A program made the translations under genes and the position numbers. The notes under the pieces were generated by a model. That model was not told where the DNA came from, did no database searches, and saw only the letters and a program-made list of their open reading frames with translations. From positions 1 through 25,885 of the IMG/VR virus record IMGVR_UViG_3300048837_001311: 25,885 bases of DNA; one strand, given 5' to 3'. The DNA comes from a virus. Position 1 is the stretch's first letter. Each line of letters starts with the position of its first letter. This document shows positions 1 through 15,453 of the stretch, piece by piece.

Positions 1-26
1 GCCCACGAGGCGGGTTCGTCGTTTTT
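1..26 (+). terminator. Right half of a terminator cut by the window start
   Basis: Bases 1-3 (gcc) can pair with 9-11 (ggc) around a short loop, and 12-14 (ggg) would pair with bases outside the window. A T run follows at 22-26. It looks like the end of a rho-independent terminator closing the gene before the lysis cassette. The left arm is missing, so this is tentative. Confidence 0.25.
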
Positions 27-36
27 GGAGACTGCC

Positions 37-1563: not shown

Positions 1564-1570
1564 TGGCTGG

Positions 1571-1816
1571 GTGTTGGCCCCCGAGTCCAAGTGGTGGTTC
1601 TCAGCCTTCGTGGACTTCACGTTCAACCTTGGTGCGGGGCGTCTGCCAATGTCGATGCTGCAGCCAAGGGTGAATCAGCGGTACGGGTTAGCTGCCAGTC
1701 AGGAGGGCTGCCGATGGGTCTTTGGCGGCGGAGCAGTGCTTCCGGGGATTGTCGCAAGACGGAACACAGCACTGATCGTCTGCAGTGGCGACCGATTGTT
1801 GTGTGCAACTATCTGA
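1571..1816 (+). pseudogene. Decayed C-terminal remnant of a second GH24 lysozyme
   Basis: The open frame reads FSAFVDFTFNLGAGRL, then RWVFGGG, then VLPGIVARR. These are the conserved C-terminal landmarks of lambdoid/P22-type phage lysozymes (alignment made from memory). The N-terminal half with the E/D/T active site is absent, there is no usable start or ribosome site, and the last 15-20 residues have drifted. It lies directly after the Rz stop and directly before the AT-rich block. It is probably the residue of an endolysin lost when the cargo block arrived or when lysis modules recombined. Confidence 0.65.
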
Positions 1817-1827
1817 AACCGTAGAAT
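1799..1827 (+). promoter_or_regulatory. Possible sigma70 promoter for the HNH gene
   Basis: TTGTGT at 1799-1804 and TAGAAT at 1822-1827 are separated by exactly 17 bases. The -35 match is poor. The site lies about 60 bases before the HNH start, at the point where the sequence becomes AT-richer. No clear ribosome site precedes ATG 1890. Weak evidence only. Confidence 0.2.
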
Positions 1828-1889
1828 GATTGTATTTGTCAACATGGCGCACGTTCATTCCGCAGCGCGCCCAAAAATAGTGAACATCT

Positions 1890-3293
1890 ATGGTAAAGCT
1901 TCCGGGGAAAACTGCATATTCCGGCGTACGGCGTCCAATGACAAGAGAGTCTGGATTCTCATCGCACCCTGATTCAACTGGTGGCGAGTGGAAAAAAGAA
2001 AGCTCTAAAACCCTTAAACTCCAAGCCGGGGAAACTGTGGAAATTGTTTTCACAATCCCGGATCACACACCAAATACGTGGATAGCGTTCGGCGGATGGT
2101 ATTGTGCAGATAAATGCTTGGCAATTGAAATTACCTCCCCAAATCCAAAGCACACATTATCAGAGCCAGCATCGCCGAATTGGTCGAAATTTGGAAGCAT
2201 GTGGCAGGGAGATGGCAAAGGAGTTACTGCCACCGTCTCTATGACTGCGAATAAAAACGCAAGTATCTCTCTTTGGAATATAGCTTGTGGGCTCGTTGAA
2301 CAGCCGGGCTGCCATACCGGCGGCAAGTTCGAAGTATGTACTGCTCCGGGATATCTAAGCAATTTGCACCTGCTTTCACCGGAGGCGCACTTTTGGAGCA
2401 CCAAAGGGGAAACTGAGATCGCACTGCTTGGGTCGACAGAAGTACTGGAACTGAGCGACGCTGGTGAGCATATTTTTCTAAAAACTTGCAATCGATGTGC
2501 ACGCTTTCTTCCGATAAATGTAAATGACGAGCGCGTTCAACTAAGCTTCTCCAATCATTGTGTTGCTCGCCGACCGTGCATACACACAGGCTTTGGAAAA
2601 CTAAAGAATGCAGAAACGCAGGAAGTCCTCCAGCTTGACTACGGATACCAGCTTGAGTGTAGATTCTGCAAGAAGTATTGCGTCAATGCAGCCCATAATA
2701 AAAATAGAACTGGCGCTCAGATGAAGGAAGACGGCGCTCGCCGTAGGCATTTTGAATTGTTGGTTACCGAGCTCTATCAAATGAGCAGGCAGATGGCGTT
2801 CAAGCACCGAACCGGTGTTGAACTGTCTGATTACATCTGGAAAAAATTTAGCTGCAAGTGCTTCAATTGCAACGCAGATCTTCCGACTGTGAAGTCGATG
2901 GCGCTAGATCACACTAGGCCACTAGCACTGCTTTGGCCGCTTGATGAAACTGCGACTGCATTATGCGGATCATGCAACAGCTCCAAAAGCGATCGCTATC
3001 CGAGGGAATTTTACTCGGATGATCAGTTAGTGAGGCTCAGCGCTCTAACTGGCATTCCCGTTGATCAACTTAACGAGCCCACTCCGAACGTCGAGGTCAT
3101 AACCGAGCTTGTTAAGCGCTTAGATTGGCTTTTTGATACGTTTCTAATGCGAGCTGAAATGGTCAGAGTTCGAGATGGAAAGATAACTGGCGAGTTAGTG
3201 GTAAAGGCACTCCAGAAAGCCTTTGATGCTGCCCCTGGAGGCGCGCCGGTCGATCTTGTTGCGGAATATGAATTACGACGGCAGAAAAAATAA
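1890..3293 (+). CDS. HNH endonuclease, putative restriction enzyme
   Basis: A 467-residue protein. The C-terminal third carries an HNH/beta-beta-alpha-metal nuclease: zinc-type cysteines C322/C324/C327, the catalytic pair D340-H341 (LDHTRPL), then C359/C362 followed by N363 and K366 (CGSCNSSKSDRYP). An earlier Cys cluster (CNRC near 200, CRFCKKYC near 260) suggests a second metal-binding module. The first 190 residues look beta-rich (for example VEIVFTIP, WIAFGGWYC) and I do not recognise them; they could recognise DNA. The gene converges on a tandem methyltransferase and shares its AT-rich composition, so the two likely form one R-M system. HNH restriction enzymes such as MnlI and Eco31I are known. 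ATG 1890 has no obvious Shine-Dalgarno; ATG 1938 is an alternative. A solitary defence nuclease is possible. Confidence 0.75.
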   Translation: MVKLPGKTAYSGVRRPMTRESGFSSHPDSTGGEWKKESSKTLKLQAGETVEIVFTIPDHTPNTWIAFGGWYCADKCLAIEITSPNPKHTLSEPASPNWSKFGSMWQGDGKGVTATVSMTANKNASISLWNIACGLVEQPGCHTGGKFEVCTAPGYLSNLHLLSPEAHFWSTKGETEIALLGSTEVLELSDAGEHIFLKTCNRCARFLPINVNDERVQLSFSNHCVARRPCIHTGFGKLKNAETQEVLQLDYGYQLECRFCKKYCVNAAHNKNRTGAQMKEDGARRRHFELLVTELYQMSRQMAFKHRTGVELSDYIWKKFSCKCFNCNADLPTVKSMALDHTRPLALLWPLDETATALCGSCNSSKSDRYPREFYSDDQLVRLSALTGIPVDQLNEPTPNVEVITELVKRLDWLFDTFLMRAEMVRVRDGKITGELVVKALQKAFDAAPGGAPVDLVAEYELRRQKK

Positions 3294-3323
3294 TAGCCAC
3301 TATGGTTTTTCTATAAATGCACC

Positions 3324-3353
3324 GTACCCATCAAGCAACAGCTTGATGGGTAC
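3324..3353. terminator. Bidirectional terminator-like hairpin between convergent genes
   Basis: A perfect 13-bp inverted repeat (gtacccatcaagc and its complement) closes a 4-base loop (aaca). It lies between the stops of the HNH gene (3293) and the methyltransferase (3415). There is no long U run on either side, so termination would be imperfect or factor-assisted. Its position between converging genes fits transcript separation or 3'-end protection. Confidence 0.55.
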
Positions 3354-3414
3354 TGAGAAATTGTTGCAGGCCTTATGAATTCACCACTTCATCAAAAAAT
3401 AAAGATACTACGCT

Positions 3415-5967
3415 TTATTTCTGAAGAATAAGGTACTGATGTCCTGTGGTGGTTCCTTTGTCACGAATGCCATGACTCTCGCAATGTCCTACTGATTCGG
3501 TAGCGATGTCCAGTACATTAAAAAGTCCGTTGACCTGCTTGGTCAACTCCATTGCCATATCACATTTGTGACTTAGCCCAAGGTGCAGCACAGCCAATCC
3601 GCCAGGCTTTAGGCGGGCATGAAACTGCTCAAAAATCCCTCGATAAACATCGAAGGTTTTCTTCTGAAGCGATTCGACGAATTCATTCGCGCGGGTATCG
3701 TAATCACTTCTTGCCCATCCGCAGAACCAGAATCTCATCCAGTTTGTTATATAGAAGCGTGTCGAGTCGTAGAATGGCGGCGATGTGATGATGGCATCTA
3801 TATCTCGGAGTTCTGCCGGCCATTCAGAACAAATATCACCTTGAAAGCATCGCCCAGTGGGGAGGTCGTCTGTCAACTGAGAGGCCAAGCTTTTCTCAAC
3901 TTTCGCCCTGACCTTTTCTACAACAGATTTTTTTATGAAATCTCCTGTGGGTGCATATGGGGTTATAGGGTGGCTGTTTCTACTTAAAGCGTAAGGCCTG
4001 TTGCCATGCAGGACATGAAGCATGCAGGCCATGACCAGATGCCACTCCGGCGAATCACTCTGGTTCGCCGCAAAGAACTCGCGTGCAGATAGCACCTCCT
4101 GGTACGTATCAGGATGGAAATACTCCGCAAGAGCCCCATTGAACCTAATCTCCTCCGCTTGCCGCAGTGTGCCGGAGGTAGCCTTGTTATTCTTAATCCA
4201 CAAATCTAGCTTATCGATTAAATGGCGCACCTTTTGTTCGTCAGCACGCATTAGCTTTGCATTGGATACGGCAGTGCCCAGCAGACTAATTTCCAAGCCG
4301 TATCCCTCGCGCCCCATCAAGCATGCCTCAAATGGAATCGTTCCAGACCCACTAAATGGGTCGAGGACCTTGTCACCTCTGCGACTGAATACATCAACCA
4401 AATGGTGCGCTAAGGCAGGCTTCATTTTTGCCTGATAAGAGCAAACCGAGTGCAGTTGGCTACCCCAGTTCCGTTTTGAGTACGGCTCCTTCTGGTGTGG
4501 CAATACATCTTTGAAATTTTCCCATCGAGAAAGAAAATCTCCTTTATCTTCCGCTTCATGGAAAGGCTCATTTGTTAAAGACGGATCTGGCTTTAAGCCT
4601 GCGCTATCCTTTTTTCTGAACACAATCAGCGATTGAGACAATACGCTGCGATCCTTTGATATCCTGCTCCTCAGATGCAACGTCTCGATGTGCTCAAGGC
4701 CAATATCAACTCCCAGCGACTCAAGAATCTCATGCGTGGGAACATGTATCCCGCCATATCGACTATCGCCAATATCAATGCAGATCGGCGCTCCTGGTTT
4801 GCAGCTATGCATTAGCCCCTGAAGGACAAGCCTCATGTCTTCGAAATAGCCTGCCACCATTCTAGGAATTCTCTGGTCGTAGGCGTTCTCAGAGAGCTTA
4901 TCAACCAGCATCTGAATCGATTTGTGGACAATCTTTCTACCCTGCGCCACACCAACATCATTAATGCCGGAAGTAATTGCAGCATCCCTGTAGGATCTTA
5001 GAGTCGTTCCGTTTGACAGAAAGCGCCCATACCAAAGCTCTAGCTTTGTATTTCTAAAGTAATTTGTTCCATTTAGGTAAGGCGGTGAAGTAATGACCCC
5101 ATCAGCATCAAATGATGCCGTCTTCAAAAGATCGCGAGCGTTGGCTGTAATGATGCCAACAGACGCCGTCAGATGGTCGGCGGCCAAACAATCCCCCGAT
5201 ATGAGAAGGAGATGGCTTGAGACCTCACCGATGAGATCTGGAATGCCTTTCTGAAGTTCTTTTTCTGTTTTGTATCTAACGTCACCAGACCGCTTCAACA
5301 TTGAGCAAATGACGAGTTTCGCCATCACTGCAATGGTGAATAAATTTCCAATCAACTCGTCTTCTTTTGCAACATCATCATTGACAGTCCTGAGAGAAAG
5401 CACTGCAGCCATGCCGACATCGTTGAAGAATTGACTTCCCTCAAAGTTAACTTTGTAGTCATCCTGTAAAGCTTTGTCCGGTTGCGCTGCTTTTACTAGA
5501 TCTCGGAGGTTTTCGGCAATAACCTGAAGTCTTGAGGCAATTTTCTTTCGACGCGTCATTGTGGCAGAGCCAAGCGCCATCTTCGCTTCGACGACGAGCC
5601 GCATAGCGGGATTCACTTCGCAGTAGCCACAATCAATGCCAAATGCAGCCAAAGCCACAGGGGTTGTCCCTGTCCCAGCAAAAGGCTCAATTATCTTTTT
5701 GGCATTCGGCATGTATTTCGCAAGAACAAACTTGACAAATTCTGATGAAAATCCTTCTAGGTATGGGTACCAGTCATGAAAGGGCTCTCCTTTACCACCT
5801 TGATGGGTTACTTGTGTGGCAGCTAACGTTTCCAGGCCAGATAGACTGAGTTGCATTTGATTTGATTTTTTCTTGAATTTTCTAGAGCAATTAGCGTCAC
5901 CAGAGCCCCTAAGCATTTCTGTGCAAGAGGAAACAAGGCGCTTCTCGTTAGTAATGATTTCGGTCAT
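3415..5967 (-). CDS. Tandem-domain DNA methyltransferase (TSPPY/TSPPF)
   Basis: An 850-residue protein with two SAM-dependent amino-methyltransferase modules. Module 1 has the SAM motif EPFAGTGT (94-101) and catalytic TSPPY (293-297). Module 2 has DPFSGSGT (536-543) and TSPPF (728-732). (T)SPPY is usual for N4-cytosine enzymes, whereas DPPY/NPPY is usual for N6-adenine, so m4C is the better guess. Fused tandem methyltransferases such as M.FokI protect both strands of asymmetric type IIS sites. With the convergent HNH gene this suggests a type IIS-like R-M pair. The motif order I-IV-I-IV could also be read as a beta-class core (IV 293, I 536) inside a larger protein. The start overlaps the stop of the upstream RHH gene (ATGA), so the two are coupled. 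Codon use is more AT-rich than in the phage genes. Confidence 0.85.
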   Translation of the reverse strand: MTEIITNEKRLVSSCTEMLRGSGDANCSRKFKKKSNQMQLSLSGLETLAATQVTHQGGKGEPFHDWYPYLEGFSSEFVKFVLAKYMPNAKKIIEPFAGTGTTPVALAAFGIDCGYCEVNPAMRLVVEAKMALGSATMTRRKKIASRLQVIAENLRDLVKAAQPDKALQDDYKVNFEGSQFFNDVGMAAVLSLRTVNDDVAKEDELIGNLFTIAVMAKLVICSMLKRSGDVRYKTEKELQKGIPDLIGEVSSHLLLISGDCLAADHLTASVGIITANARDLLKTASFDADGVITSPPYLNGTNYFRNTKLELWYGRFLSNGTTLRSYRDAAITSGINDVGVAQGRKIVHKSIQMLVDKLSENAYDQRIPRMVAGYFEDMRLVLQGLMHSCKPGAPICIDIGDSRYGGIHVPTHEILESLGVDIGLEHIETLHLRSRISKDRSVLSQSLIVFRKKDSAGLKPDPSLTNEPFHEAEDKGDFLSRWENFKDVLPHQKEPYSKRNWGSQLHSVCSYQAKMKPALAHHLVDVFSRRGDKVLDPFSGSGTIPFEACLMGREGYGLEISLLGTAVSNAKLMRADEQKVRHLIDKLDLWIKNNKATSGTLRQAEEIRFNGALAEYFHPDTYQEVLSAREFFAANQSDSPEWHLVMACMLHVLHGNRPYALSRNSHPITPYAPTGDFIKKSVVEKVRAKVEKSLASQLTDDLPTGRCFQGDICSEWPAELRDIDAIITSPPFYDSTRFYITNWMRFWFCGWARSDYDTRANEFVESLQKKTFDVYRGIFEQFHARLKPGGLAVLHLGLSHKCDMAMELTKQVNGLFNVLDIATESVGHCESHGIRDKGTTTGHQYLILQK

Positions 5968-6203
5968 GCCCCTGCTCCTGTCGAAGGGGCGGGTGATTGC
6001 GGCTTCACTTCACCTAGCGTTGGTGCGGAGCTTGCATTTGAAAATGACAAAGGCAATTGGTTGTTTGCCGTCATGTAGCTCTCAACATTTCTTAAAAACC
6101 AATCTTTTAGAGTCAAACCATCCCGAGCTAGGGCGGCGTAGAGCAGCCGCTTGGATTCAGGCTCAATCTCAATGACTATGCGACCGCTGCTACCAATACT
6201 CAT
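5964..6203 (-). CDS. Small ribbon-helix-helix regulator coupled to the methyltransferase
   Basis: A 79-residue protein. Residues 8-14 (RIVIEIE) fit the RHH DNA-contact strand, 15-29 and 32-46 fit the two helices (SKRLLYAALARDG, then LTLKDWFLRNVESYM), and the rest is a Pro/Ser/Ala-rich tail. RHH proteins bind DNA as dimers and often repress their own operon. Its stop overlaps the methyltransferase start, so it is the first gene of that operon. It faces mcrB across a short region holding an 11-bp inverted repeat, its likely operator. In an R-M setting it could act like a control (C) protein. It could also be an antitoxin-like RHH, but no toxin gene is next to it. Confidence 0.65.
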   Translation of the reverse strand: MSIGSSGRIVIEIEPESKRLLYAALARDGLTLKDWFLRNVESYMTANNQLPLSFSNASSAPTLGEVKPQSPAPSTGAGA

Positions 6204-6217
6204 GGAAGAATCCGTGA

Positions 6218-6249
6218 CAATGTAATGTGCTGGATGTTACATTACATTG
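6218..6249. promoter_or_regulatory. 11-bp perfect inverted repeat, likely RHH operator
   Basis: CAATGTAATGT (6218-6228), ten bases, then ACATTACATTG (6239-6249). Each arm contains TGTAATGT, a short near-symmetric motif of the kind RHH dimers bind. It lies 15 bases upstream of the RHH start and 110 bases before the mcrB start, so one bound complex could control both divergent units. Confidence 0.6.
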
Positions 6250-6263
6250 AGGGGGAAGGGAAA

Positions 6264-6288
6264 GCCAAGGCCGATCTTGGCCCTTGGC
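6264..6288 (+). other. Hairpin in the mcrB leader
   Basis: GCCAAGGCC and GGCCCTTGGC pair over nine base pairs with one bulged C and a six-base loop. It sits between the inverted-repeat operator and the mcrB start, so it would form in the mcrB 5' leader. No U run follows. A role in attenuation or stability is only a possibility. Confidence 0.3.
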
Positions 6289-6359
6289 CGAAGATGGAGC
6301 CTGATGGGCCGAAGGGGCACATCGGCGATTTCGCTCTAGAACGTAAAAGAGGACTTGCT

Positions 6360-8150
6360 ATGGCTCGCTATTCGGAACACGACACAAACAAGATCTACCG
6401 AGCAGCAGACTCATTTCGCGCCAACTGCCTCCTGCGTGACGGCTCGCTACTGTTCGCCGACGATTCTGTTTGGCGTCCCGACGTGCTGGAGCGCATCCAC
6501 AAAGCCTTCGTTGCCACCCCCGACGAGGGCGACCGTACGTTCATCGACAAGTTCAAAGACCAAGTCGGAAAAGCCGGACAGGACGTATCACGTCTTGCGG
6601 CAGAGATCTTGAGCGTGTACTTCCTTTTCCCATCCAGTGTCGGTGGCGTGCGCAAGCGGCAGGTCGTGAACGAGGTGCTCGGCTGGGGCGGCGACAGCCT
6701 TCCAGAGTCACACCCTGTTTCGGCAGCCTTCGCTAACGGGATCGGCAGTGGCGGTCAAGGCTACAACACCCGCCGACCCTTCGAGATCGCCTTTCTGATC
6801 GAGCTCGCCATCGCGTGGAAGAAGCTGCCACAAGATCGGCAGGTAGAGGTGGCGGCCGATCCGAGGCTCTTTCAAGAGGTTGTGGACAGCATTGAGGATG
6901 CGGAGTCGAAGCAGCTGCGGCATATGCTTCTTCATCTCTTGTTCCCCGAACACTTCGAACGCATAGCAAGTGGAAATCACAAGCGCAGAGTCATCAAGGC
7001 TTTCTCGGGGCTAGTCACTGCCGAAGCAGAGGATGATGACCGGGCGATATTGGCCATCCGCCAGGAGCTCGAAAAGCTGCTTCCCAACCAGGAGCTGGAC
7101 TTTTACTGGTCACCGCTGGTCGAGGCTTGGTACGACGATAGCGAGGGCGCATCTGAAGGCGCGCCGCTGGAGATCATCCAGCACAAGAAGCAGATCGTCC
7201 TCTATGGCCCACCGGGTACTGGCAAAACTTTCCGCGCCAAGAAGCTGGCTGAGAGGGTCATCCGATCTGAGGCACTGAGCCAAATGGGCCCGGCTCGCTA
7301 CTTCCAGTCGCAATCTGCTATCGAAGCCGCGATCCGCGACAACGTGCATCGACTCCAGCTGCACCCGGCCTACAGCTACGAAGACTTCATTCGCGCACTC
7401 CACATTTCGAATAGTGGTGGCACGGAATATCGAGCTGGCTACCTTCCAAAGCTGATTGAGGACATCGAGCAGCAGCCACGCGCTGAACGTCTGCCGCACA
7501 TCCTGATCCTGGATGAAATGAACCGGACGGACCTGAGTCGGATGCTCGGCGAGTGCTTCTCCTTGCTTGAGGATCGCAATCAGACGATTGAGCTTCCGGC
7601 ACGAAATGGTGACGGGGCGGCAATGAAGCTGCGCATCCCCGACGATCTGTACGTGATCGGAACCATGAACCTGATCGACCAGTCCATCGAGCAGATCGAC
7701 TTCGCGCTGCGCCGCCGTTTCCTGTGGCTACTTTGCCCGTTTGACGCCGAGGCTCTAGTGGGTGCCGCCGAATTCAAGTGGCAGGTTCTGAAATCGGGCC
7801 TGGAGTGGGATCGCATCGAACCGGACTTCCGCAAATTGGCTGCAGCGGCGGCGGCGTTGAACAGGCAGATTCACGACAGCCCGCTGCTTGGCTCGCAGTA
7901 CGAGATCGGGCACACCTACCTGCTAGATGTGGTCGTGTTCCTGCGCAATTTCCTCGGTGCTCGACCTACACGCAAGCAGAACTACCTTTGGAACAAAAAG
8001 GGTGAGGCGCTGGAGCCCGTCGTGCAGGTGTGGAATCTGTCCCTTCGCCCGTTGCTCGAGCAGTATCTCGCCGGGCTGGACGCGACCGCGCGCAACACGG
8101 AGCTCGACCGGCTCTCCAAGGTTCTTCTCAAGCCGTCGGTGGCCGAGTGA
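6360..8150 (+). CDS. mcrB: McrB-like AAA+ GTPase motor of an McrBC restriction system
   Basis: A 596-residue AAA+ protein. Residues 1 to about 250 form a family-specific N-terminal region, expected to read modified or specific DNA. The motor follows: Walker A GPPGTGKT (283-290), the HPAYSYEDF motif, Walker B LILDEMNR with D385/E386, and the sensor GTMNLIDQS before FALRRRF. McrB proteins assemble as hexamers and drive the McrC nuclease to cut DNA with modified cytosines. The usual McrB MNTADRS motif reads MNLIDQS here, so nucleotide choice may differ. I chose ATG 6360 (AGAGGA upstream); ATG 6225 lies inside the operator and is unlikely. Its stop overlaps the mcrC GTG. Divergence from an RHH-methyltransferase operon recalls LlaJI, where McrBC-like subunits pair with methyltransferases. 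Confidence 0.88.
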   Translation: MARYSEHDTNKIYRAADSFRANCLLRDGSLLFADDSVWRPDVLERIHKAFVATPDEGDRTFIDKFKDQVGKAGQDVSRLAAEILSVYFLFPSSVGGVRKRQVVNEVLGWGGDSLPESHPVSAAFANGIGSGGQGYNTRRPFEIAFLIELAIAWKKLPQDRQVEVAADPRLFQEVVDSIEDAESKQLRHMLLHLLFPEHFERIASGNHKRRVIKAFSGLVTAEAEDDDRAILAIRQELEKLLPNQELDFYWSPLVEAWYDDSEGASEGAPLEIIQHKKQIVLYGPPGTGKTFRAKKLAERVIRSEALSQMGPARYFQSQSAIEAAIRDNVHRLQLHPAYSYEDFIRALHISNSGGTEYRAGYLPKLIEDIEQQPRAERLPHILILDEMNRTDLSRMLGECFSLLEDRNQTIELPARNGDGAAMKLRIPDDLYVIGTMNLIDQSIEQIDFALRRRFLWLLCPFDAEALVGAAEFKWQVLKSGLEWDRIEPDFRKLAAAAAALNRQIHDSPLLGSQYEIGHTYLLDVVVFLRNFLGARPTRKQNYLWNKKGEALEPVVQVWNLSLRPLLEQYLAGLDATARNTELDRLSKVLLKPSVAE

Positions 8151-9472
8151 AGCTAGTCGCGCGTGACTGCTCGCCGCTTGTCCCGCAACCGACAGCGGCA
8201 GAGGCGAACTGGCTCCGTAAGCTCGCAACAAATGTCCGAGCATCGGATCTTGTCGTTCCCATCTCTGGCGAGAGGGATGAGGACGAACCCATCGTCTACT
8301 GTGAATGGGACGGCACCTGGTGGGCTGGCAGGTACGTCGGCTCGATTTCCTTCGAGGGGCACAGCCTGACCATTGAGCCACGTTTTGGTCTGGCCGCGCT
8401 TCGGAATTGGCTTTTTGAAGCAACCTCAGTCGTGCTGACCGACGCGCCAGGAAAGCTCCGGGAGGACGAATCGTTCATTGCCCAACTCCTCGCGTCCGTT
8501 TGGGCCCACGGCTTCGTCGAGGCGGCTCGGCATGGGCTGCCCGCACTACGCCGCGACGTGGCGACGAAAGGCGTGGCGGTTAGGGGACGGCTTGATGTCC
8601 CTGCATCACTGCGCATGATCGCCGCAGGCGGTGGGCAGGTCGTGTCTATCCGTTCGGAGCGGTCGTTGGATCACGCAGCCTCCGATGCCATCGTCGCCGC
8701 TTACGAGGTTCTGCGACGGTGGCTTGGGGTGCCTGATGAAAAATGGCTGCCGACACGTGCCAAGGAGCTTCTTCCCCATTTGATGGCTGTCACCGGTGCG
8801 CGACCACGCGTGCCTACGAAGGCCGAACTGGACAGGATTCGCTACACACCGATCACGGCGGGCTTCGCCCACATCGCGGAGCTTTCGCGGCAGATTGCAA
8901 ACCGAAGGGGGCTCGCTGCCGATATTGATGCCAGCGGCGATACGAAAGGTGTGCTGCTCGACGTGGCCGAGCTGTGGGAGATGTACGTCCTCAGCATTCT
9001 GCGGAAGGCCGCCGCACCGCTGACGGTGACTCACGGCACCCGAGATAAGTCTGTCACCAAGAAACTGCTCCACAGCGATGTCTCCGGCCAAGGTTTGGGC
9101 ATGTTGATACCCGACGCCATACTGTTCTCAGGCTCCACCATCAGAGGGGTGGTTGATGCCAAGTACAAGTCCCTTCATCCATCTGCCAGCTCACCAAATG
9201 GGCCGCAGCGCGACGACCTGTATCAGATGGCCGCCTATCTGGGACGCTTTCAGTCTCCTGCCGGAATGGTGATCTGGGGCCTTTTGGCGTATCCCTTCGA
9301 CCCATCAAAACCTGGTACGCCCAATGCCGAGCAGAGAAGCCCATGGAGCCTTGATGACCGAAAGAAGATCGGCTTTGCCACGTTGCCCCACAACCCCGCC
9401 GACGCAGTGGCCAAGTTACGCTCCTTGGTCATGCAAGTAGCCACTCCTGCTGCTTGGCCTGCAAGAGCGTGA
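8147..9472 (+). CDS. mcrC: McrC-like PD-(D/E)XK nuclease subunit
   Basis: A 441-residue partner of McrB. The N-terminal beta-rich half (for example WDGTWWAGRYVGSI, LTIEPRFG) matches the McrC region that contacts the motor. The C-terminal half holds the nuclease core: D323 (LIPDAIL) and D337-A-K339 (VVDAKYK), with a supporting YQMAAYLGRF helix. McrC is the catalytic subunit that cuts DNA when McrB translocation stalls. GTG 8147 overlaps the mcrB stop (GTGA), so the pair is co-translated; a longer in-frame extension back to 8030 would lie wholly inside mcrB and is rejected. Downstream is about 390 bases of non-coding sequence. Confidence 0.87.
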   Translation: MKLVARDCSPLVPQPTAAEANWLRKLATNVRASDLVVPISGERDEDEPIVYCEWDGTWWAGRYVGSISFEGHSLTIEPRFGLAALRNWLFEATSVVLTDAPGKLREDESFIAQLLASVWAHGFVEAARHGLPALRRDVATKGVAVRGRLDVPASLRMIAAGGGQVVSIRSERSLDHAASDAIVAAYEVLRRWLGVPDEKWLPTRAKELLPHLMAVTGARPRVPTKAELDRIRYTPITAGFAHIAELSRQIANRRGLAADIDASGDTKGVLLDVAELWEMYVLSILRKAAAPLTVTHGTRDKSVTKKLLHSDVSGQGLGMLIPDAILFSGSTIRGVVDAKYKSLHPSASSPNGPQRDDLYQMAAYLGRFQSPAGMVIWGLLAYPFDPSKPGTPNAEQRSPWSLDDRKKIGFATLPHNPADAVAKLRSLVMQVATPAAWPARA

Positions 9473-9570
9473 AGTTCCGGCGACCACGGCTTGCACGATG
9501 ACCGAACACAGTTGGCCAAATCGTCGAATCCACGCCCTCAAGGCCAATGCGTTACTATCTGGCTCGGCAA

Positions 9571-9604
9571 ACGGACGCGGGTTCGGTTCCGTGTTCCACC
9601 ACCA
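9571..9604 (+). other. tRNA/tmRNA 3'-end-like remnant
   Basis: The stretch CGGACGCGGGTTCG followed by TTCCACCACCA resembles the T-arm and acceptor end of tmRNA (E. coli ssrA has GGACGCGGGTTC and ends in CTCCACCA) or of a tRNA. A strong terminator follows ten bases later, as after real RNA genes. The T-stem pairs imperfectly and I could not fold a full tRNA or tmRNA upstream, so this is at most a fragment. It could mark a past integration site. Confidence 0.35.
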
Positions 9605-9610
9605 ACATTT

Positions 9611-9642
9611 AAAAAACCAACCGTTCTCGGTTGGTTTTTTTT
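9611..9642 (+). terminator. Strong rho-independent terminator
   Basis: AAAAAACCAACC and GGTTGGTTTTTT form a 12-bp perfect stem around a six-base loop (gttctc), followed by further T residues. It would end transcripts from mcrBC or from the RNA-like stretch just upstream. The A-run on the left also gives a U run on the minus strand, so it may work both ways. Confidence 0.8.
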
Positions 9643-9653
9643 CGCCCGTTCCC

Positions 9654-9802
9654 CCCAGTGCTGGCGCGGGTTCGGGCCTCGCTGCGAAGGACGCCGCAGC
9701 CCCGGACACCCCGGTTTCGGGTCGTTTTCCGTTCTCAGATGCCGCCCATTCTCTGTTTCTGCGAAGGAGGACTTCGCACCCGCCCCAGCACTGGCGCGGG
9801 TT
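9654..9802. repeat. Pair of 19-base imperfect direct repeats in a non-coding region
   Basis: cccagTGctggcgcgggtt (9654-9672) recurs as cccagCActggcgcgggtt (9784-9802) with two differences, 130 bases apart. A 7-bp hairpin (tgcgaag/cttcgca, 9760-9778) lies between them. No open frame in 9473-9862 looks real. The repeats could be relics of an insertion junction or a small repeat family of the host. Confidence 0.45.
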
Positions 9803-9823
9803 TCCGGCGGCTTGTTCGTCAGG

Positions 9824-9844
9824 AAAACCGCCCTGACGCGGGCG
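9824..9844 (-). terminator. Terminator of the QueC operon
   Basis: On the minus strand CGCCC, six bases, GGGCG and then GTTTT follow the queC-like stop by about 20 bases. The stem is short but GC-rich and the T run is in the right place for rho-independent termination. Confidence 0.5.
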
Positions 9845-9862
9845 ACCCGACCCCGGGCGGGG

Positions 9863-11974
9863 CTACTCGTTGACGATGGGGCGGACGTCCCAGACAACGG
9901 GCGTTCCGGGCCGGTAGACCACCTCGTTGCCGTGCTTGATGCTGGCCTTCAGATGCTCGGCCAGGGGTTTGTCGTACTTCCCGATGGCCGTGATCGCCCG
10001 GTTGACGGCGTTGCGGAAGGCGTCCCGGACATTTTTTCGCTTGTCGCCAGCCTTGCGGAGCTTGCCGCCCTTGCCGACGCCCGCCGTGAGCGCATCGGCG
10101 ATCTGGGCCAGCTCGTCCTCGATTTCCTCCACACGCTGGTGGTCGCCGTCTTGCTCGGCTTCCGCCTTCTCGATCACAAGTAACTGGTACTTGGCCCGGT
10201 ACTGCTCGACTGCCTTCCTGTCCACCACGACGCCTGCGTCGCCCAGCGGCGCTCCTGTCGTAACCTGGAAACCCTCCTCAATGTCATCGTGCTCCAGTCC
10301 GGAACTCGCCTGCTCGGCGACGCCCAGCGCGTAGCCGCAAACGACTTCGTAGACGGATGCCTCCCGATCCGGATGCGCCAGCAGCAGGTTGATGTACTCC
10401 GCGCCCTTATCCACGCCGACGATGTTGATCCTGTTCCCGCGATTGAACCGAGCCTCCCAACCGCCGCCGCGCTTGCGAAAGAAGTTGTCCGGCTGCTTCT
10501 CCTTCGACGACACCGCTGGCACCGAGATCACCGATGCGGACTCATGCACCGTGCGCAGCAAGGCGTCGCCTGGCATGGTGCGCTCACGAATGGCCGTCGC
10601 ATGGCGGCGAACCATCTCATCCGACGCGGCGTTCACCTCGCCAGCGTGGCGCTTGTAGAGATCGAACACGCGCTGGGCAGCCTGCGCCGTGCTTCCGCCG
10701 AGGAAGCGCAATACCCGGTTCACCTCGGCGTACTTGGCAAGAAACTGCCCGACGTTCTCCAGCGCTCCCACTTGGTTGGCCCGCTCCAAGTAGGACGCGG
10801 ACATGATCTTGTCGTCGTCCTTGTTCCGGCTCTGGGTGAACACATCAGCCTTGTAGTGATCAATCGGGTCGTACTGGTCGGCCTTGGCGGCGATGACCGC
10901 AAAGCGTCGGTCGATGCACTGCGAACACAGGCCGCAGTGGGTGTGCTGGTTCGTCATTTCCCACGTGTGCGTGCAGGTCATCGAATGCTTGATCAGATCG
11001 GCGCAGCCTACCTTGACGATCTGTTCGACGACTTCGGCCTTGGTTTTCCAGATGTACGGGTTCTCGACCGTGAATGGCGCTTCGGCCACCAGCGTCAAGA
11101 TGTCTTGGAAGCCCTTCATCACCTTGGGGTGCGTCGTCCGGGTGGCGCGGCCGCCGACGACCTGAGCGCACACCGGCAGGTTCAGGCTGATCACGCCGTT
11201 CTCGTAGAAACGCACGCTGCTCAGGCCGAGCATCTTGGCGATGGTTGCGCCAATCGAGACGAACAGGAACGAGCGGCTGCGCTGCGTGTATTCCCGGTTC
11301 ATTGGCTTTTTCTTGTGAACGCGCACGCTGATCTGATGCGGCGCGTTGTCTCCGGCCTTCTGCGCCAGCAGGTCTCGAAGCGTCTTGTGCCGGGTGTTGA
11401 GCTTGGGCGTGGCCTTGTGCGTGACCAGCACCACGCGTCGCTGCTGGCTCAACACCTCGTCGAGCGCACCCGCCAGTGAGTCGAGGCCGCCAGAGAACAT
11501 CACCACTTGCTCCGGCTTGCCGTAGATGGCCTGCGCGTCGTTGAACTCCAGATAGTCCTGGATCGAATGATCCTGCGCCAGCTTGACGAAGGTGAACTCG
11601 TAGTTGTCGTCCGACAGAAAGCCCAACGTCGAGGTCAGTGCGCTCTTCATCTCGGCGCTGTTCCAGAAATCCGGGTTGCGCACCGGCACCACGAAATGAA
11701 GATCGCGCCGCCACCCATCGCCGAAGTTATCAACATCATCTGCGCCGCGCAGAATGACCTGATCGGCGCTGTAAACGTAGGTGGCAATCTCCAGCAGGTC
11801 GTGGAACTTGGCCGGCACGCTGCTGAACATCTTGCTGTGGATGTCCTCGATGCGCAGCGTGATGTTGCCTTCACCCTGCACGCCAGAAAGCCGAAGGCGA
11901 GTGTCGTTCTTCGGATCGTCGCTGATGCCCTTGGCCGAAGCGTTTCCGCAAATGATGAATTTCTTAGTTTGCAC
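9863..11974 (-). CDS. QueC-like PP-loop enzyme fused to a regulator-type C-terminal domain
   Basis: A 703-residue protein. QueC makes preQ0 (7-cyano-7-deazaguanine) by ATP-dependent amidation; relatives occur in defence systems (QatC, Cap9 of type IV CBASS). Visible here: the PP-loop SGGLDS (161-166), ENGVISLNLP near 260, and zinc cysteines C334, C347, C350 and C353 (CGLCSQC). Residues 1-150 are an extra N-terminal region. Residues about 503-697 form a further domain (GGGWEARF, AEYINLLLAHPDREA, a coiled coil at 590-635, then GKGGKLRKAG, AEHLKASIKHG) that I associate with the C-termini of actinobacterial regulatory ATPases. Housekeeping QueC is only about 230 residues, and no queD/E/F gene is nearby. 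GTG 11974 has GGGAG upstream and a 10-base overlap with the preceding gene; ATG 12001 is the alternative. Confidence 0.8.
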   Translation of the reverse strand: MQTKKFIICGNASAKGISDDPKNDTRLRLSGVQGEGNITLRIEDIHSKMFSSVPAKFHDLLEIATYVYSADQVILRGADDVDNFGDGWRRDLHFVVPVRNPDFWNSAEMKSALTSTLGFLSDDNYEFTFVKLAQDHSIQDYLEFNDAQAIYGKPEQVVMFSGGLDSLAGALDEVLSQQRRVVLVTHKATPKLNTRHKTLRDLLAQKAGDNAPHQISVRVHKKKPMNREYTQRSRSFLFVSIGATIAKMLGLSSVRFYENGVISLNLPVCAQVVGGRATRTTHPKVMKGFQDILTLVAEAPFTVENPYIWKTKAEVVEQIVKVGCADLIKHSMTCTHTWEMTNQHTHCGLCSQCIDRRFAVIAAKADQYDPIDHYKADVFTQSRNKDDDKIMSASYLERANQVGALENVGQFLAKYAEVNRVLRFLGGSTAQAAQRVFDLYKRHAGEVNAASDEMVRRHATAIRERTMPGDALLRTVHESASVISVPAVSSKEKQPDNFFRKRGGGWEARFNRGNRINIVGVDKGAEYINLLLAHPDREASVYEVVCGYALGVAEQASSGLEHDDIEEGFQVTTGAPLGDAGVVVDRKAVEQYRAKYQLLVIEKAEAEQDGDHQRVEEIEDELAQIADALTAGVGKGGKLRKAGDKRKNVRDAFRNAVNRAITAIGKYDKPLAEHLKASIKHGNEVVYRPGTPVVWDVRPIVNE

Positions 11975-12752
11975 TGGTGCGCGCTCCCGCTTGCAATTCA
12001 TTCTTCATCTTCTTCAGCGCATAGCCAGCAAAGCCATCGGACGATTTTCTTGAAATGTCGCCGCCTTCCTCGTAGCGGTGCTTTGAGAACCAGTCGGACG
12101 AGTAGTCGCGGACTATCAACGATGCTTCCCGCGTATGCGTGTCCAGCGCATGATCGAATTGGGACTTTTGGTTCATCGTCGCAAAACGCATTCCTTCACC
12201 CACTTGGGTCGACAGCGTCTTGGACAAAAAATACTGAAGGCTCTCGTTGGTGAGCCGGTCAAAGAACGAGCGCGACAGGTCGCCGAACTCCTTTTGCTTT
12301 CCGAGATTGGAAAGCGCTGCGCGCATCGTGTCCTTGTCGTTCGGAAAAAGCCCGTTCAAGTGAGGCTGAAGCGCGTCGGCCACTGCGCTGATCAGCGCGC
12401 GCCCGGAGATTTCAGCCAGATCGGAACGCCTATAGGAACTGTCGACGACACGATCCAAGGCATCTGAGATGCCCACCGTCACGTCAGACAGGGTTGCATC
12501 GTCTGGCAGAGAAATGCCGACGGATCGAAGATGAGCGTAGGGATCGTCCTTCTTGGCAGCGATGGCCAGTTGCGTCATCAGCCACACAGCTTCCGTGTAG
12601 CCCTTGTCATCCATCACGAAGGAGAAGGCCTTTTCGGCAGCGGTGATGGTGGCGTTGGCGACCTGGGACACGTCAGCGCCAGCGGCGATCAGACCGACGA
12701 CCTCCTTCCACGCCTTCGTTCTTGGCAGTACCCCGAGCCGAACATGCCCCAT
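11964..12752 (-). CDS. Unknown partner protein starting Met-Gly, linked to the QueC-like enzyme
   Basis: A 262-residue, mostly helical, soluble protein with no motif I can assign. Striking parts are the N-terminus MGHVRLGVLPRTKAW and the C-terminal EFGDLSRSFFDRLT, LQYFLSKTL and FAGYALKKMKNEL. I recall similar proteins beside QueC-like fusions, but not a named family. It sits as the middle gene, 35 bases after the repressor and overlapping the QueC-like gene. Size and position resemble QatB, the poorly understood partner of QatC, though I see no sequence match. The Met-Gly start would leave an N-terminal glycine after Met removal, a possible modification site for the neighbouring enzyme (inference). 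ATG 12752 follows a GAGG site. Confidence 0.7.
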   Translation of the reverse strand: MGHVRLGVLPRTKAWKEVVGLIAAGADVSQVANATITAAEKAFSFVMDDKGYTEAVWLMTQLAIAAKKDDPYAHLRSVGISLPDDATLSDVTVGISDALDRVVDSSYRRSDLAEISGRALISAVADALQPHLNGLFPNDKDTMRAALSNLGKQKEFGDLSRSFFDRLTNESLQYFLSKTLSTQVGEGMRFATMNQKSQFDHALDTHTREASLIVRDYSSDWFSKHRYEEGGDISRKSSDGFAGYALKKMKNELQAGARTSAN

Positions 12753-12787
12753 CCAGGATTCCCCTCAATGAAATCAAAGCATCGTGG

Positions 12788-13021
12788 TCATTCGTTGCGC
12801 TTCACGATCACGATGCTCCGCGCTTTTCTTTCTTCTTTCCTCAAGTACCCCTTGCGCACCAGCTGCGCGATTTGTTCATGAGCGCTGGCGTGGCTGATCC
12901 CCAGCGCTTCTGCCAATTCCTTGACGGTGGGCGGCAGGCCCGTGCTGTCCAGGATTTGGCAGATTGCTCTCAACGTTCTTGTCTGCGGTTCCGTAATGCC
13001 TTCGGTTTTTCGCTTGCTCAT
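12788..13021 (-). CDS. LexA-type DNA-binding mini-repressor of the QueC operon
   Basis: A 77-residue protein that matches only the winged-helix DNA-binding half of LexA: the PPTVKELAEALGISHASAHEQIAQLVRKGYL region carries the helix-turn-helix and wing start. The autocleaving S24 peptidase half of LexA is absent, so it cannot respond to RecA by self-cleavage. I chose ATG 13021: GAGGAG lies seven bases upstream, and a frame extension to 13048 would start inside the -10 region. It is the first gene of the operon, and a perfect palindrome in its promoter is its probable operator. Autoregulation of a defence operon is the simplest reading. Confidence 0.8.
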   Translation of the reverse strand: MSKRKTEGITEPQTRTLRAICQILDSTGLPPTVKELAEALGISHASAHEQIAQLVRKGYLRKEERKARSIVIVKRNE

Positions 13022-13046
13022 GGCATGGCTCCTCACCGATTTGAGC

Positions 13047-13075
13047 AATATATGACCTGATGAACATCAGGTCAA
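13047..13075 (-). promoter_or_regulatory. Sigma70 promoter with embedded 22-bp palindromic operator
   Basis: On the minus strand TTGACC (13075-13070), a 17-base spacer and TATATT (13052-13047) form a near-consensus promoter. The perfect palindrome at 13053-13074 (half site TGACCTGATG, two central bases) covers most of the -35 box and the whole spacer. A protein bound there would block RNA polymerase. The LexA-type repressor is the first gene downstream. Confidence 0.8.
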
Positions 13076-13109
13076 TGGAGGCGACCCAAGACGAACCACA
13101 CTCTCCCGG

Positions 13110-13244
13110 CTACCGCCGGGATGTGTGTCGCCAGTCCCACGGTGCCGTCGGATTGGCATCCCGCCACAACCCGGCACGGCGATTGCGCGCCTCCTGCTCG
13201 GCAGACTGCTCCCGCGCGTACTGGCGGTACCACCACGCCATTCC
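13110..13244 (-). pseudogene. C-terminal remnant of a staphylococcal-nuclease-like protein
   Basis: The frame reads GMAWWYRQYA, then RNRRAGLWRDANPTAPWDWR. This matches the C-terminal end of SNase-type thermonucleases (G-x-AWWY, then RRGLW-D-x-P-x-PPW-WR), from memory. The beta-barrel with the active site is not in this frame; a neighbouring frame upstream holds FCTARTYPKT, which may be another piece. No start is present. Nothing else in 13075-13442 looks coding. It is a decayed gene between the QueC operon and the integration module. Confidence 0.6.
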
Positions 13245-13442
13245 GGTTGTAGCTGCGCCAGCCCGTCGTCCACGGTCTTGGGGTAAGTGCGTGCGGTGCA
13301 GAAGGGATCGGCGATCAACGCCGCCCAAAAAAATCTGCTGGAAATCTCGCTCTCCCTATCTGATGAGCCCTGAAACGGGATACCCCGACCGCCCTGTGTG
13401 CATATTCTTCGTAACGGTCTGACAACTTTACTGGCTACCGAA

Positions 13443-13631: not shown

Positions 13632-14089
13632 ACGCATCAACCACTGCCCCGTCGCTGGCGGCGCAAATCGCCAGCCTGCCCAACTTGGACATGAAGGACT
13701 TGTGGGTGCTCTGGGACAAGTATTTCCCGCAGCGCCCACCCCACAACAACCGGGCCTATGTCGAAGGCCGCGTCGCCTACAAGATTCAGGAGGAGGCGCT
13801 GGGCACCAAGCTCGTCGTGCAGGCGCAAATGGCGCGAATCGGCGAAGCGCAGTCCAACATCAAGACGCAGCGCGGCGTCGAAGTGCAAGTGATCCCCGGC
13901 ACAGTGCTGGTGCGGGAATTCGACAACCGCGAACACCGCGTCACCGCGCAGGCGGATGGCTCCTTCGAGTACGAAGGTCGCCGCTTCAAGAGCTTGTCCG
14001 GGGTCGCCCGCCACATCACCGGCACCCAGTGGTCAGGGCCGCTGTTCTTCGGAATCACCAAGAACAAGCCGAAGCGAGGTGCCCAATGA
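13628..14089 (+). CDS. DUF2924 family protein
   Basis: A 153-residue protein with the DUF2924 pattern: LPNLDMKDLWVLWDKYF, RAYVEGRVAYKIQEEALG, then a beta-rich C-terminal half ending in FEYEGRRFKSLSGVARHITGTQWSGPLFFG. The last part resembles the small fold that follows YEGR-x-F-x-SLS-x-A in many phage and transposon proteins. These proteins nearly always precede a large serine recombinase, as here, and may be DNA-binding accessory factors. AGAAGGAG lies upstream of ATG 13628. Both ends overlap neighbours by ATGA, so the module is one translational unit. Confidence 0.85.
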   Translation: MNASTTAPSLAAQIASLPNLDMKDLWVLWDKYFPQRPPHNNRAYVEGRVAYKIQEEALGTKLVVQAQMARIGEAQSNIKTQRGVEVQVIPGTVLVREFDNREHRVTAQADGSFEYEGRRFKSLSGVARHITGTQWSGPLFFGITKNKPKRGAQ

Positions 14090-15453
14090 ACGCCGTCGTC
14101 ACCAAGAAGCGCTGCGCCGTCTACACCCGCGTCTCCACCGACGAACGCCTCGACCAGTCCTTCAACTCCCTCGACGCCCAGCGCGAGGCAGGCCAAGCCT
14201 ACATCGTGAGTCAGCGGGCCGAGGGCTGGTTGCCGGTGGGCGACGACTACGACGACGGCGGCTACTCGGGCGGCAACGTGGAACGTCCGGCCTTGAAGCG
14301 CCTGATGGCCGACATCATCGCCGACCAGATCGACATCGTGGTGGTCTACAAGATCGACCGCCTGACTCGCAGCCTGACCGACTTCGCCAAGCTCGTGGAC
14401 GTCTTCGAGCGCCACAAGGTGTCGTTCGTGTCGGTCACGCAGCAGTTCAACACCACCACGTCGATGGGCAGGCTGATGCTCAACATCCTGCTGTCCTTCG
14501 CCCAGTTTGAGCGCGAGGTTACCGGCGAGCGCATCCGCGACAAGATCGCCGCCAGCAAGCGCAAGGGGCTGTGGATGGGCGGCTACACGCCGCTGGGCTA
14601 CGAGATCAAAGACCGCAAGCTGATCATCGAGGAGAAGGATGCGCAAACCATCCGGCGCATCTTCACCCGCTTCACCGAGACGCGCAGCATCACAGACATC
14701 ATCCGCGAGATGGGGCTGGAGGGCATCACCACCAAGCCCAACCGCCTGAAGGACGGCAGCGTGCGCAACGGCACGCCGATGGACAAGAAATACATCTCCA
14801 AGGTGCTGCGCAATCCGATCTACGTGGGCGAGATTCGCCACAAGGGGACGGTGTATGCCGGTCAGCACGAGCCGATCATCACCCGGCAGTTGTGGGATCG
14901 GGTGCAGGACATCCTGTCCGAGGACGCCCATCAGCGCATGGGCAAGACCCAAACGCGGCACAAGACCGACGCGTTGCTGCGTGGCCTGATGTACGGCCCC
15001 GACGGTGGCAAGTACCACATCACCTACAGTAAGAAGCCCTCTGGCAAGAAGTACCGCTACTACATCCCCAAGGCGGACAACCGCTACGGCTACCGCAGCA
15101 GCGCCACCGGGATGATCCCCGCCGACCAGATAGAGGAAGTGGTGGTCAACCTGCTGGTCGGCGCGCTCCAGTCGCCCGAAACCATCCAGGGCGTCTGGAA
15201 CACGGTGCGCAAGCAATACCCGGAGGTTGACGAGCCGACCACCGTGCTGGCCATGCGCCGCATCGGGGAGGTCTGGAAACAACTATTCCCAGCTGAACAG
15301 GTGCGGCTGGTCAACCTGCTGATCGAGCGCGTCCAGCTCCTCTCCGACGGCGTCGACATCGTCTGGCGCGAGTCGGGATGGCGCGATCTGGCCGGTGAGT
15401 TGCGGGCGGACAGCATCGGCGGCGAGATGCTGGAAATGGAGGTGGCCCCATGA
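14086..15453 (+). CDS. Large serine recombinase (integrase)
   Basis: A 455-residue site-specific recombinase. The N-terminal resolvase domain (1-155) has AVYTRVS with nucleophile S17, the YKIDRLTRS motif and the LSFAQFERE helix. The recombinase domain follows (ISKVLRNPIYVGEIRHKG; LIITRQLW-like PIITRQLWDRVQ). The zinc-ribbon region (LMYGPDGGKYHITYSKK to YYIPKADN) lacks the cysteines seen in many relatives. It is probably the integrase of this element and reads toward the replication genes. No attP core could be proved in the 13245-13442 region. It is coupled to both neighbours by ATGA overlaps. Confidence 0.93.
   Translation: MNAVVTKKRCAVYTRVSTDERLDQSFNSLDAQREAGQAYIVSQRAEGWLPVGDDYDDGGYSGGNVERPALKRLMADIIADQIDIVVVYKIDRLTRSLTDFAKLVDVFERHKVSFVSVTQQFNTTTSMGRLMLNILLSFAQFEREVTGERIRDKIAASKRKGLWMGGYTPLGYEIKDRKLIIEEKDAQTIRRIFTRFTETRSITDIIREMGLEGITTKPNRLKDGSVRNGTPMDKKYISKVLRNPIYVGEIRHKGTVYAGQHEPIITRQLWDRVQDILSEDAHQRMGKTQTRHKTDALLRGLMYGPDGGKYHITYSKKPSGKKYRYYIPKADNRYGYRSSATGMIPADQIEEVVVNLLVGALQSPETIQGVWNTVRKQYPEVDEPTTVLAMRRIGEVWKQLFPAEQVRLVNLLIERVQLLSDGVDIVWRESGWRDLAGELRADSIGGEMLEMEVAP

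What the first reader, a model, noticed from the sequence alone, without database searches (positions are those of the whole stretch)
9863..13075. Compact QueC-like operon: LexA-type repressor, Met-Gly partner, QueC fusion
The sequence shows a self-contained operon with its own promoter and terminator: a 77-aa LexA-type DNA-binding protein, a 262-aa unknown protein and a 703-aa QueC-like enzyme, placed in a defence cargo region. QueC homologues are established in Qat (QatC) and type IV CBASS (Cap9), but Qat's ATPase (QatA) and TatD nuclease (QatD) and the CBASS CD-NTase are all absent, as are queD/E/F. I infer a minimal, possibly undescribed deazapurine-based defence or protein-modification system.
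Basis: partly seen in the sequence, partly recalled or inferred. Interest (0 to 1): 0.85.

Follow-up and report, generated by a model that had tools for sequence, protein, structure and literature searches.

The report
Mini-Qat: compact QueC-type phage-defence cassette
A prophage carries a self-regulated gene pair whose enzyme belongs to the QatC branch of anti-phage proteins and probably tags the front end of its partner protein; unlike known Qat systems it lacks the other two Qat genes, has an unrelated-looking partner, and carries an exchangeable module on the enzyme's tail.

Summary
On the minus strand lie a 77-aa LexA-type DNA-binding protein (13021-12788), a 262-aa unknown protein "B" (12752-11964) and a 703-aa QueC-like fusion "QC" (11974-9863, GTG start). 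A conserved promoter with an embedded 22-bp near-palindrome precedes them. QC residues ~53-395 are QatC-type by HMM, fold, active-site signature and tree; they are neither metabolic QueC nor Cap9. B matches no family. Its first 15 residues (MGHxxLGxxPxxxxW) are far better conserved than the rest, as expected of the N-terminal tail that QatB presents to QatC.

The same cassette recurs in many prophages beside a serine integrase, at the attachment end and often near other defence genes. Distant B+QC pairs (22-35% identity in B) occur in other proteobacterial elements and a Leptospira plasmid, without QatA/QatD nearby. QC's C-terminal module varies: a STAND-ATPase-type tail here, a winged-helix-like domain elsewhere, a DpnII/MboI nuclease-like domain in Leptospira. 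Two hosts carry intact pairs but show no queD, queE or canonical queC, so a host-made deazaguanine substrate is doubtful.

Verdict: an undescribed two-protein variant of the QatBC kind, probably phage defence by N-terminal protein modification. No function was tested.

The parts
13047..13075 (-). promoter TTGACC-N17-TATATT; 22-bp inverted repeat TGACCTGATGTTCATCAGGTCA (13053-13074, 20 of 22 positions symmetric) fills the spacer: likely autoregulatory operator
   Evidence: present in 25 of 26 homologous loci, normally 25 nt before the HTH start codon; only promoter-like site in 9400-13300 (expected by chance 0.8)
12788..13021 (-). 77-aa LexA-type winged-helix DNA-binding protein without protease domain (predicted autorepressor)
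   Evidence: PF01726 51.7 bits, cut-off 23.7; 100-83% identical in homologous cassettes
11964..12752 (-). B, 262-aa all-helical partner protein, predicted substrate of QC
   Evidence: no family hit; AlphaFold2 pLDDT 80, pTM 0.82, ten helices and an unstructured N-terminus
12708..12752 (-). B N-terminal motif MGHVRLGVLPRTKAW (residues 1-15)
   Evidence: pairwise identity 65% here versus 28% elsewhere among 6 divergent members; 7 of 17 invariant columns, P = 6e-6
9863..11974 (-). QC, 703-aa QatC-type enzyme with C-terminal module (GTG start overlapping the end of B)
   Evidence: start conserved; homology
10790..11818 (-). QatC-like catalytic region of QC (residues 53-395)
   Evidence: PADLOC QatC E 5e-59; NCBIfam QatC 225 bits, below cut-off 280; Foldseek QatC 9y01_B E 2e-15
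11477..11494 (-). SGGLDS ATP pyrophosphate loop (residues 161-166)
   Evidence: sequence; invariant in clade
11126..11149 (-). RATRTTHP (residues 276-283) holding the QatC-type Thr278/Thr280 in place of the QueC/Cap9 Tyr/Asp
   Evidence: alignment to PDB QatC
10904..10975 (-). zinc site C334 ... CGLCSQCIDRR (C347, C350, C353)
9866..10492 (-). C-terminal module of QC (residues ~495-703), like the C-terminus of actinobacterial STAND/AAA-TPR proteins
   Evidence: (33% over 120 aa, E 2e-8); swapped alleles among homologues
9573..9642 (.). tRNA/tmRNA 3'-end-like sequence (9573-9604) and stem-loop with T runs (9617-9642): phage attachment site and possible bidirectional terminator
   Evidence: in host genomes the prophage end downstream of QC abuts tRNA-Ala or tmRNA
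14086..15453 (+). large serine integrase, divergent neighbour of the cassette
   Evidence: phrog_95 E 6e-109; adjacent in homologous prophages

Best explanation
A two-protein anti-phage module of the QatBC kind, carried as prophage cargo and kept in check by a small autorepressor. Shown by sequence: QC has a QatC-type ATP-pyrophosphatase core with all QatC signature residues, B always accompanies it, and B's N-terminus is the best-conserved part of the partner. Inferred: B and QC form a complex; after removal of Met1 the Gly2 end of B enters the QC active site; QC adenylates a carboxylate group on a small molecule and ligates it to Gly2; infection changes this state; and the C-terminal module of QC (STAND-type tail here, winged-helix-like or DpnII/MboI nuclease-like in relatives) acts on nucleic acid or senses infection, replacing the separate QatA and QatD of classical Qat. 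The ligated group is probably not host-made 7-carboxy-7-deazaguanine.
For: QatC homology by HMM, by sequence to solved QatC (E 3e-32 and 8e-26, versus 1e-3 for QueC) and by fold (QatC E 2e-15, TM 0.74 by target length). QatC signature motifs named in PMC13329287 are present: D-x4-R, WxR, DxYxxxF, RxRxxxF, ExG, HP, Px4TK, CGxCxxCxxRR; so is the QatC-specific loop with Thr278/Thr280, whose mutation abolishes Qat defence (PMC13279940). QatB+QatC alone protect E. coli from lambda-vir, and QatB Gly2 plus the region around its conserved Pro16/Trp18 are needed (PMC13279940); B has Gly2, Pro10 and Trp15 invariant across 11 members, some only 22-35% identical to the window's B. QC enzymes with an MGH partner form one clade, 97/98 support, apart from Qat QatC. 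Neighbouring defence genes: McrBC (window, L050), HmaA/HmaB (L086), Avs1b-like (L046), DrmD-like helicase plus type III methylase (L008), Cas9 (L091). C-terminal modules differ between relatives, and alleles are exchanged between near-identical cores. QatA is absent from 10 of 12 genomes that carry the cassette.
Against: B is not recognisably QatB: hhalign probability 4%, and no QatB match by Foldseek although QatB-QatC structures are in the library. The N-terminal tail is ~12 residues, against 30-90 in QatB. No phage assay exists. The C-terminal module was not resolved by AlphaFold (pLDDT ~25 for residues 481-587), so its role as effector or sensor is inferred from its exchange alone. Genomic neighbourhood shows company, not function.
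Confidence: 0.6

Rival explanations
1. A toxin-antitoxin-like or abortive unit in which QC's C-terminal module (or QC as a whole) is toxic and B, or the modification of B, holds it inactive; the HTH gives the usual autoregulation. Defence, if any, would be a by-product of stabilising the prophage.
For: Small autorepressor with promoter-embedded operator; two overlapping genes; nuclease-like domain in the Leptospira fusion; location at the end of a mobile element.
Against: No known toxin fold in the window copy; QatBC shows defence without reported toxicity (PMC13279940); the catalytic core is more conserved than the tail, unlike most toxins.
Confidence: 0.17
2. A phage life-cycle or superinfection-exclusion device: the HTH and the B-QC pair act on the phage's own lysogeny or on related phages only.
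For: Fixed position beside the integrase in a family of related prophages.
Against: The pair without that HTH and phage background occurs next to HmaAB in a bacterial island (L086), in a Leptospira plasmid (L024) and in elements with Cas9 (L091).
Confidence: 0.12
3. A nucleic-acid base-modification enzyme (queuosine, archaeosine or deazaguanine-DNA pathway).
For: PF06508 match 34.5 bits, cut-off 22.
Against: No queD/E/F, tgt or dpd genes found nearby; the Tyr/Asp substrate motif is replaced by QatC-type Thr residues; two hosts show no queD, queE or canonical queC; QatC does not restore queuosine in a queC mutant (PMC13329287).
Confidence: 0.03
4. A decayed Qat locus that lost qatA and qatD and is drifting.
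For: Missing qatA and qatD; one homologue (Comamonas, L011) has a broken B and one (L086) a stop inside QC.
Against: Purifying selection on all three genes; intact in many prophages and distant lineages; distinct partner family; single clade.
Confidence: 0.03

Closest known systems
Qat (qatABCD), core pair QatB-QatC (Gao et al. PMC13279940; NCBIfam NF041924 and NF041925)
   Same: Partner gene directly before the QatC-type gene, overlapping; QatC signature, QatC loop and Thr278/Thr280; helical partner with Met-Gly start and conserved Pro and Trp in the tail; works (inferred) as a two-protein core.
   Different: No QatA and no QatD beside it; partner not homologous to QatB by any test run here; N-terminal motif MGHxxLGxxPxxxxW instead of MGTS...PxW; extra C-terminal module on the enzyme; QatC model score 225, below the curated 280; separate clade.
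Type IV CBASS Cap9 (N-terminal deazaguanylation of a CD-NTase; PMC11996544)
   Same: QueC-fold ATP enzyme next to a Met-Gly partner.
   Different: No CD-NTase and no Cap10; Cap9's Tyr/Asp deazaguanine pocket absent; QatC-type extensions present.
Canonical QueC (preQ0 synthase; PDB 3bl5)
   Same: SGGxDS loop, zinc cysteines, Rossmann core.
   Different: YPDC/VPxRN motifs absent, large extensions, no que genes found beside it, wrong clade.
STAND/AAA-TPR regulators of actinobacteria (C-terminal module only)
   Same: Same C-terminal ~120-200 residues (E 2e-8).
   Different: No NTPase or TPR part in QC.

Membership tests
Qat (qatABCD) | QatC: score above NCBIfam NF041925 cut-off (280 bits) | tested here: not met
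   225 bits for the window, 214 L062, 188 Leptospira
Qat (qatABCD) | QatC catalytic signature and QatC-specific loop with Thr278/Thr280 | tested here: met
   Leptospira has Ser at 278
Qat (qatABCD) | QatC fold including N- and C-terminal extensions | tested here: met
   Foldseek 9y01_B E 2e-15, 475 alignment columns over a 428-residue target
Qat (qatABCD) | QatB homologue | tested here: not met
   no NF041924/PADLOC match, hhalign 4%, no fold match
Qat (qatABCD) | N-terminal Gly2 with MGTS motif in the partner | tested here: inconclusive
   Gly2 invariant, but motif is MGH, not MGTS
Qat (qatABCD) | QatA KAP ATPase in the operon or genome | tested here: not met
   none beside the cassette; absent from 10 of 12 cassette genomes; one host has a separate full-score QatA, one a weak partial hit
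Qat (qatABCD) | QatD TatD-type nuclease in the operon | tested here: not met
   flanking genes in window and homologues are integrase, McrBC, host genes; TatD was not searched genome-wide
Qat (qatABCD) | Anti-phage activity needing Gly2 and ATP site | not testable with these tools
   needs plaque assays
Type IV CBASS | CD-NTase partner modified at N-terminal Gly | tested here: not met
   B matches no CD-NTase family; all-helical model
Type IV CBASS | Cap9 Tyr/Asp deazaguanine-binding residues | tested here: not met
   Thr/Thr at those positions (with PMC13279940)
Canonical QueC | TIGR00364 above cut-off, que gene neighbours | tested here: not met
   30 bits against 150.3; no que neighbours found
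LexA repressor | LexA DNA-binding domain | tested here: met
   PF01726 51.7 bits, cut-off 23.7
LexA repressor | self-cleaving S24 protease domain | tested here: not met
   protein ends at residue 77; TIGR00498 matched only over positions 2-71 of 203

The most novel reading that the evidence does not exclude
A new branch of defence systems built on N-terminal protein tagging by a QatC-type enzyme, in which the tag is not a deazaguanine (hosts that cannot make it carry the system), the tagged partner is a new protein family, and one fused, exchangeable C-terminal module (nuclease-like, winged-helix-like or STAND-tail) replaces the separate Qat effectors.
Probability: 0.3. Interest if true: 0.85.

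Novelty: new variant of a known kind. Interest (0 to 1): 0.63.

Why it matters
What QatC actually attaches to its partner, and how tagging stops phages, are stated open questions (PMC13279940). This clade offers a natural two-gene version with the likely effector fused to the enzyme. It includes a nuclease-like fusion and hosts that appear unable to make the deazaguanine precursor. These give direct tests of both questions: mass spectrometry of B's N-terminus from such a host, and mutation of the fused nuclease. It also widens the rule that QueC-fold defence enzymes come with a partner whose conserved N-terminus is the probable substrate.

Tried and rejected
B as QatB: profile-profile comparison, Foldseek against PDB and viral models, and PDB sequence search with single and profile queries gave nothing credible; the top PDB hit (ornithine transcarbamylase, E 0.012) is a short helical match and was dismissed.

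712-aa start of QC: rejected, because the upstream frame has a stop in most homologues.

Widening the family by viral-contig scans with the L062 and Leptospira B proteins: only self or nothing. A relaxed DNA pattern for the N-terminal motif did find L062; one of its other hits (L060) was chance.

Structure of the QC tail: AlphaFold gave pLDDT ~25 over residues 481-587 with the 17 sequences allowed, so no fold was claimed.

NA-iREase2 hit in the L062 tail (E 0.067): below cut-off, not used. DUF7260 hit in QC (E 0.036): below cut-off, not used.

Rfam scan of the cassette: nothing.

Papers: five searches found no description of a QatBC-like pair without QatA/D or of QatC fusions; the library lacks most subscription papers and preprints, so this is not proof of novelty.
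Full report
WHAT IS THERE. The window is a 25,885-base IMG/VR virus record, probably a fragment. It holds phage genes: endolysin, serine integrase, Sak4-like annealase, Cas4-type exonuclease, primase and a ParB-methyltransferase. On the minus strand, between the integrase and a McrBC pair, lie three genes. HTH (13021-12788, 77 aa) is a LexA-type DNA-binding domain alone. B (12752-11964, 262 aa) matches no family. QC runs from a GTG at 11974 to 9863, 703 aa; homologues show that the upstream ATG is not the start. Purifying selection acts on all three. A promoter TTGACC-N17-TATATT at 13075-13047 encloses the inverted repeat TGACCTGATGTTCATCAGGTCA, and both are kept in 25 of 26 homologous loci, so autorepression by HTH is likely (inference).

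WHAT QC IS. Its residues ~53-395 are of QatC type. PADLOC QatC gives E 5e-59, and NCBIfam QatC 225 bits, under the curated cut-off of 280. Solved QatC chains match at E 3e-32 and 8e-26, QueC only at 1e-3. The AlphaFold core matches QatC 9y01 at E 2e-15. The QatC motifs listed by Libby et al. (PMC13329287) are present, as is the QatC-only loop with Thr278 and Thr280 at the same numbers as in the Pseudomonas protein. Gao et al. (PMC13279940) showed that these threonines replace the deazaguanine-binding Tyr/Asp and that changing them to Ala or to Tyr/Asp abolishes defence.

WHAT B IS. AlphaFold gives a confident all-helical model, ten helices with a short free N-terminus. I could not connect it to QatB by sequence, profile or fold. 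Its N-terminus is nonetheless remarkable. Among six divergent members the first 15 residues are 65% identical pairwise, against 28% for the rest. Seven of 17 invariant columns fall there (P 6e-6), giving MGHxxLGxxPxxxxW. QatB needs Gly2 and the stretch around conserved Pro16 and Trp18 (PMC13279940). I take B as the functional counterpart of QatB, not as a proven homologue.

WHERE IT OCCURS. The same three genes sit divergently beside the serine integrase in many related prophages of Rubrivivax, Rhodocyclaceae, Caldimonas, Stenotrophomonas, Tepidicella, Extensimonas and others; some virus records duplicate the genome records. In several host genomes the prophage end just past QC abuts tRNA-Ala or tmRNA, so the cassette is cargo at the attachment end. 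Distant B+QC pairs were found in L062, G349, G723 and G687 and on a Leptospira noguchii plasmid. In the tree all QC with an MGH partner form one clade (97/98), apart from Qat QatC. The family is rare: 3 of 369 genomes of one class beyond none but the centre itself included (4 matches with the centre), and 3 of 398 of the phylum, centre included. Defence genes are frequent neighbours: McrBC, HmaA/HmaB, an Avs1b-like protein, a DrmD-like helicase with a type III methylase, Cas9. QatA is absent from 10 of 12 cassette genomes.

THE C-TERMINAL MODULE. Past residue ~495 the proteins differ. The window's tail resembles the C-terminus of actinobacterial STAND/AAA-TPR proteins, with two further proteobacterial relatives in other contexts. 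The Leptospira fusion has a DpnII/MboI-type nuclease domain (PF18742, E 1e-9). L062, L091 and L092 end in what reads like a winged helix with a C-terminal GYRL-type motif (judged by eye, below any Pfam cut-off). Within the window's own clade, cores 91-93% identical carry tails only 63-64% identical, and L046 shows the reverse, so the tail alleles are exchanged. Exchange of this kind fits a sensor or effector under phage pressure (inference).

SUBSTRATE. Tepidicella (G005) and G687 hold intact cassettes and a tgt gene, but no QueD/PTPS match, no QueE above background and no canonical QueC. These are draft assemblies, so absence is not proof, but several independent genes are missing while tgt is found. 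With the Thr/Thr pocket this makes a host-made 7-carboxy-7-deazaguanine substrate unlikely.

MECHANISM AND VERDICT. Most likely QC ligates a small acyl or nucleobase-like group, ATP-dependently, to Gly2 of B, and the complex, through the fused module, blocks phage. Shown: homology, motifs, recurrence, company, regulation site. Inferred: complex, modification, trigger, effector action, defence itself. It fails membership in Qat proper (no QatA, no QatD, no QatB homologue, score below cut-off) but works, as far as sequence can say, like QatBC. Novelty: new variant of a known kind.

Noticed in passing
L027 (Bradyrhizobium japonicum USDA 123 plasmid) 2004-7757: Another QatC-like enzyme (446 aa) follows a partner starting MGSGSFGGGSGS... 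and a 1041-aa protein with a weak CHAT (protease-like) domain, then an ASCH protein: possibly a further QueC-type system.
   Followed up: partly
L025, L103, L104 (Rhizobium plasmid, G517, G558): A third recurrent set: ~190-aa partner with MSDGP... start, divergent QueC-like enzyme with SDGxDS in place of SGGxDS in two of three, then a ~400-aa XRE-type protein (the Rhizobium one carries an HExxH metallopeptidase-like motif). Separate clade in the tree (100/100).
   Followed up: partly
L028 (Listeria phage LM 4-14-1) 4219-6762: Compact set: 206-aa partner starting MGTNRARID, 400-aa QatC-like, 245-aa TatD-like; no QatA-sized ORF among those listed in the 7.7-kb stretch.
   Followed up: partly
L091 (G723) 3-10685: Mobile element carrying a 923-aa Cas9 homologue, a large ORF where the serine recombinase is expected and the B+QC pair.
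   Followed up: no
L086 (G349) 6904-8865: QC copy with an in-frame TAG after residue 448; a 180-aa open frame continues the tail. Sits beside HmaA/HmaB.
   Followed up: partly
L011 (Comamonas granuli) 8001-8391: B is broken (residues ~81-207 missing, frame shifted) while QC is intact.
   Followed up: no
window 6225-9472 (+): McrB-like AAA protein and McrC-like protein as a divergent restriction pair; homologues also beside the cassette in L050.
   Followed up: partly
window 3415-5967 (-) and 1890-3293 (+): 850-aa protein with two DNA-methylase regions, and a 467-aa protein with a weak HNH/endonuclease VII-like match: more possible defence cargo.
   Followed up: no
L126, L127 (G434, G455): The same C-terminal module as QC's tail ends a TPR protein and a 420-aa protein that lies beside a phage-type primase frame: an unnamed module shared by signalling proteins and mobile elements.
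   Followed up: partly
G005 (Tepidicella) and G687: Hosts with tgt but no queD, queE or canonical queC in the assemblies: likely queuosine salvagers.
   Followed up: partly
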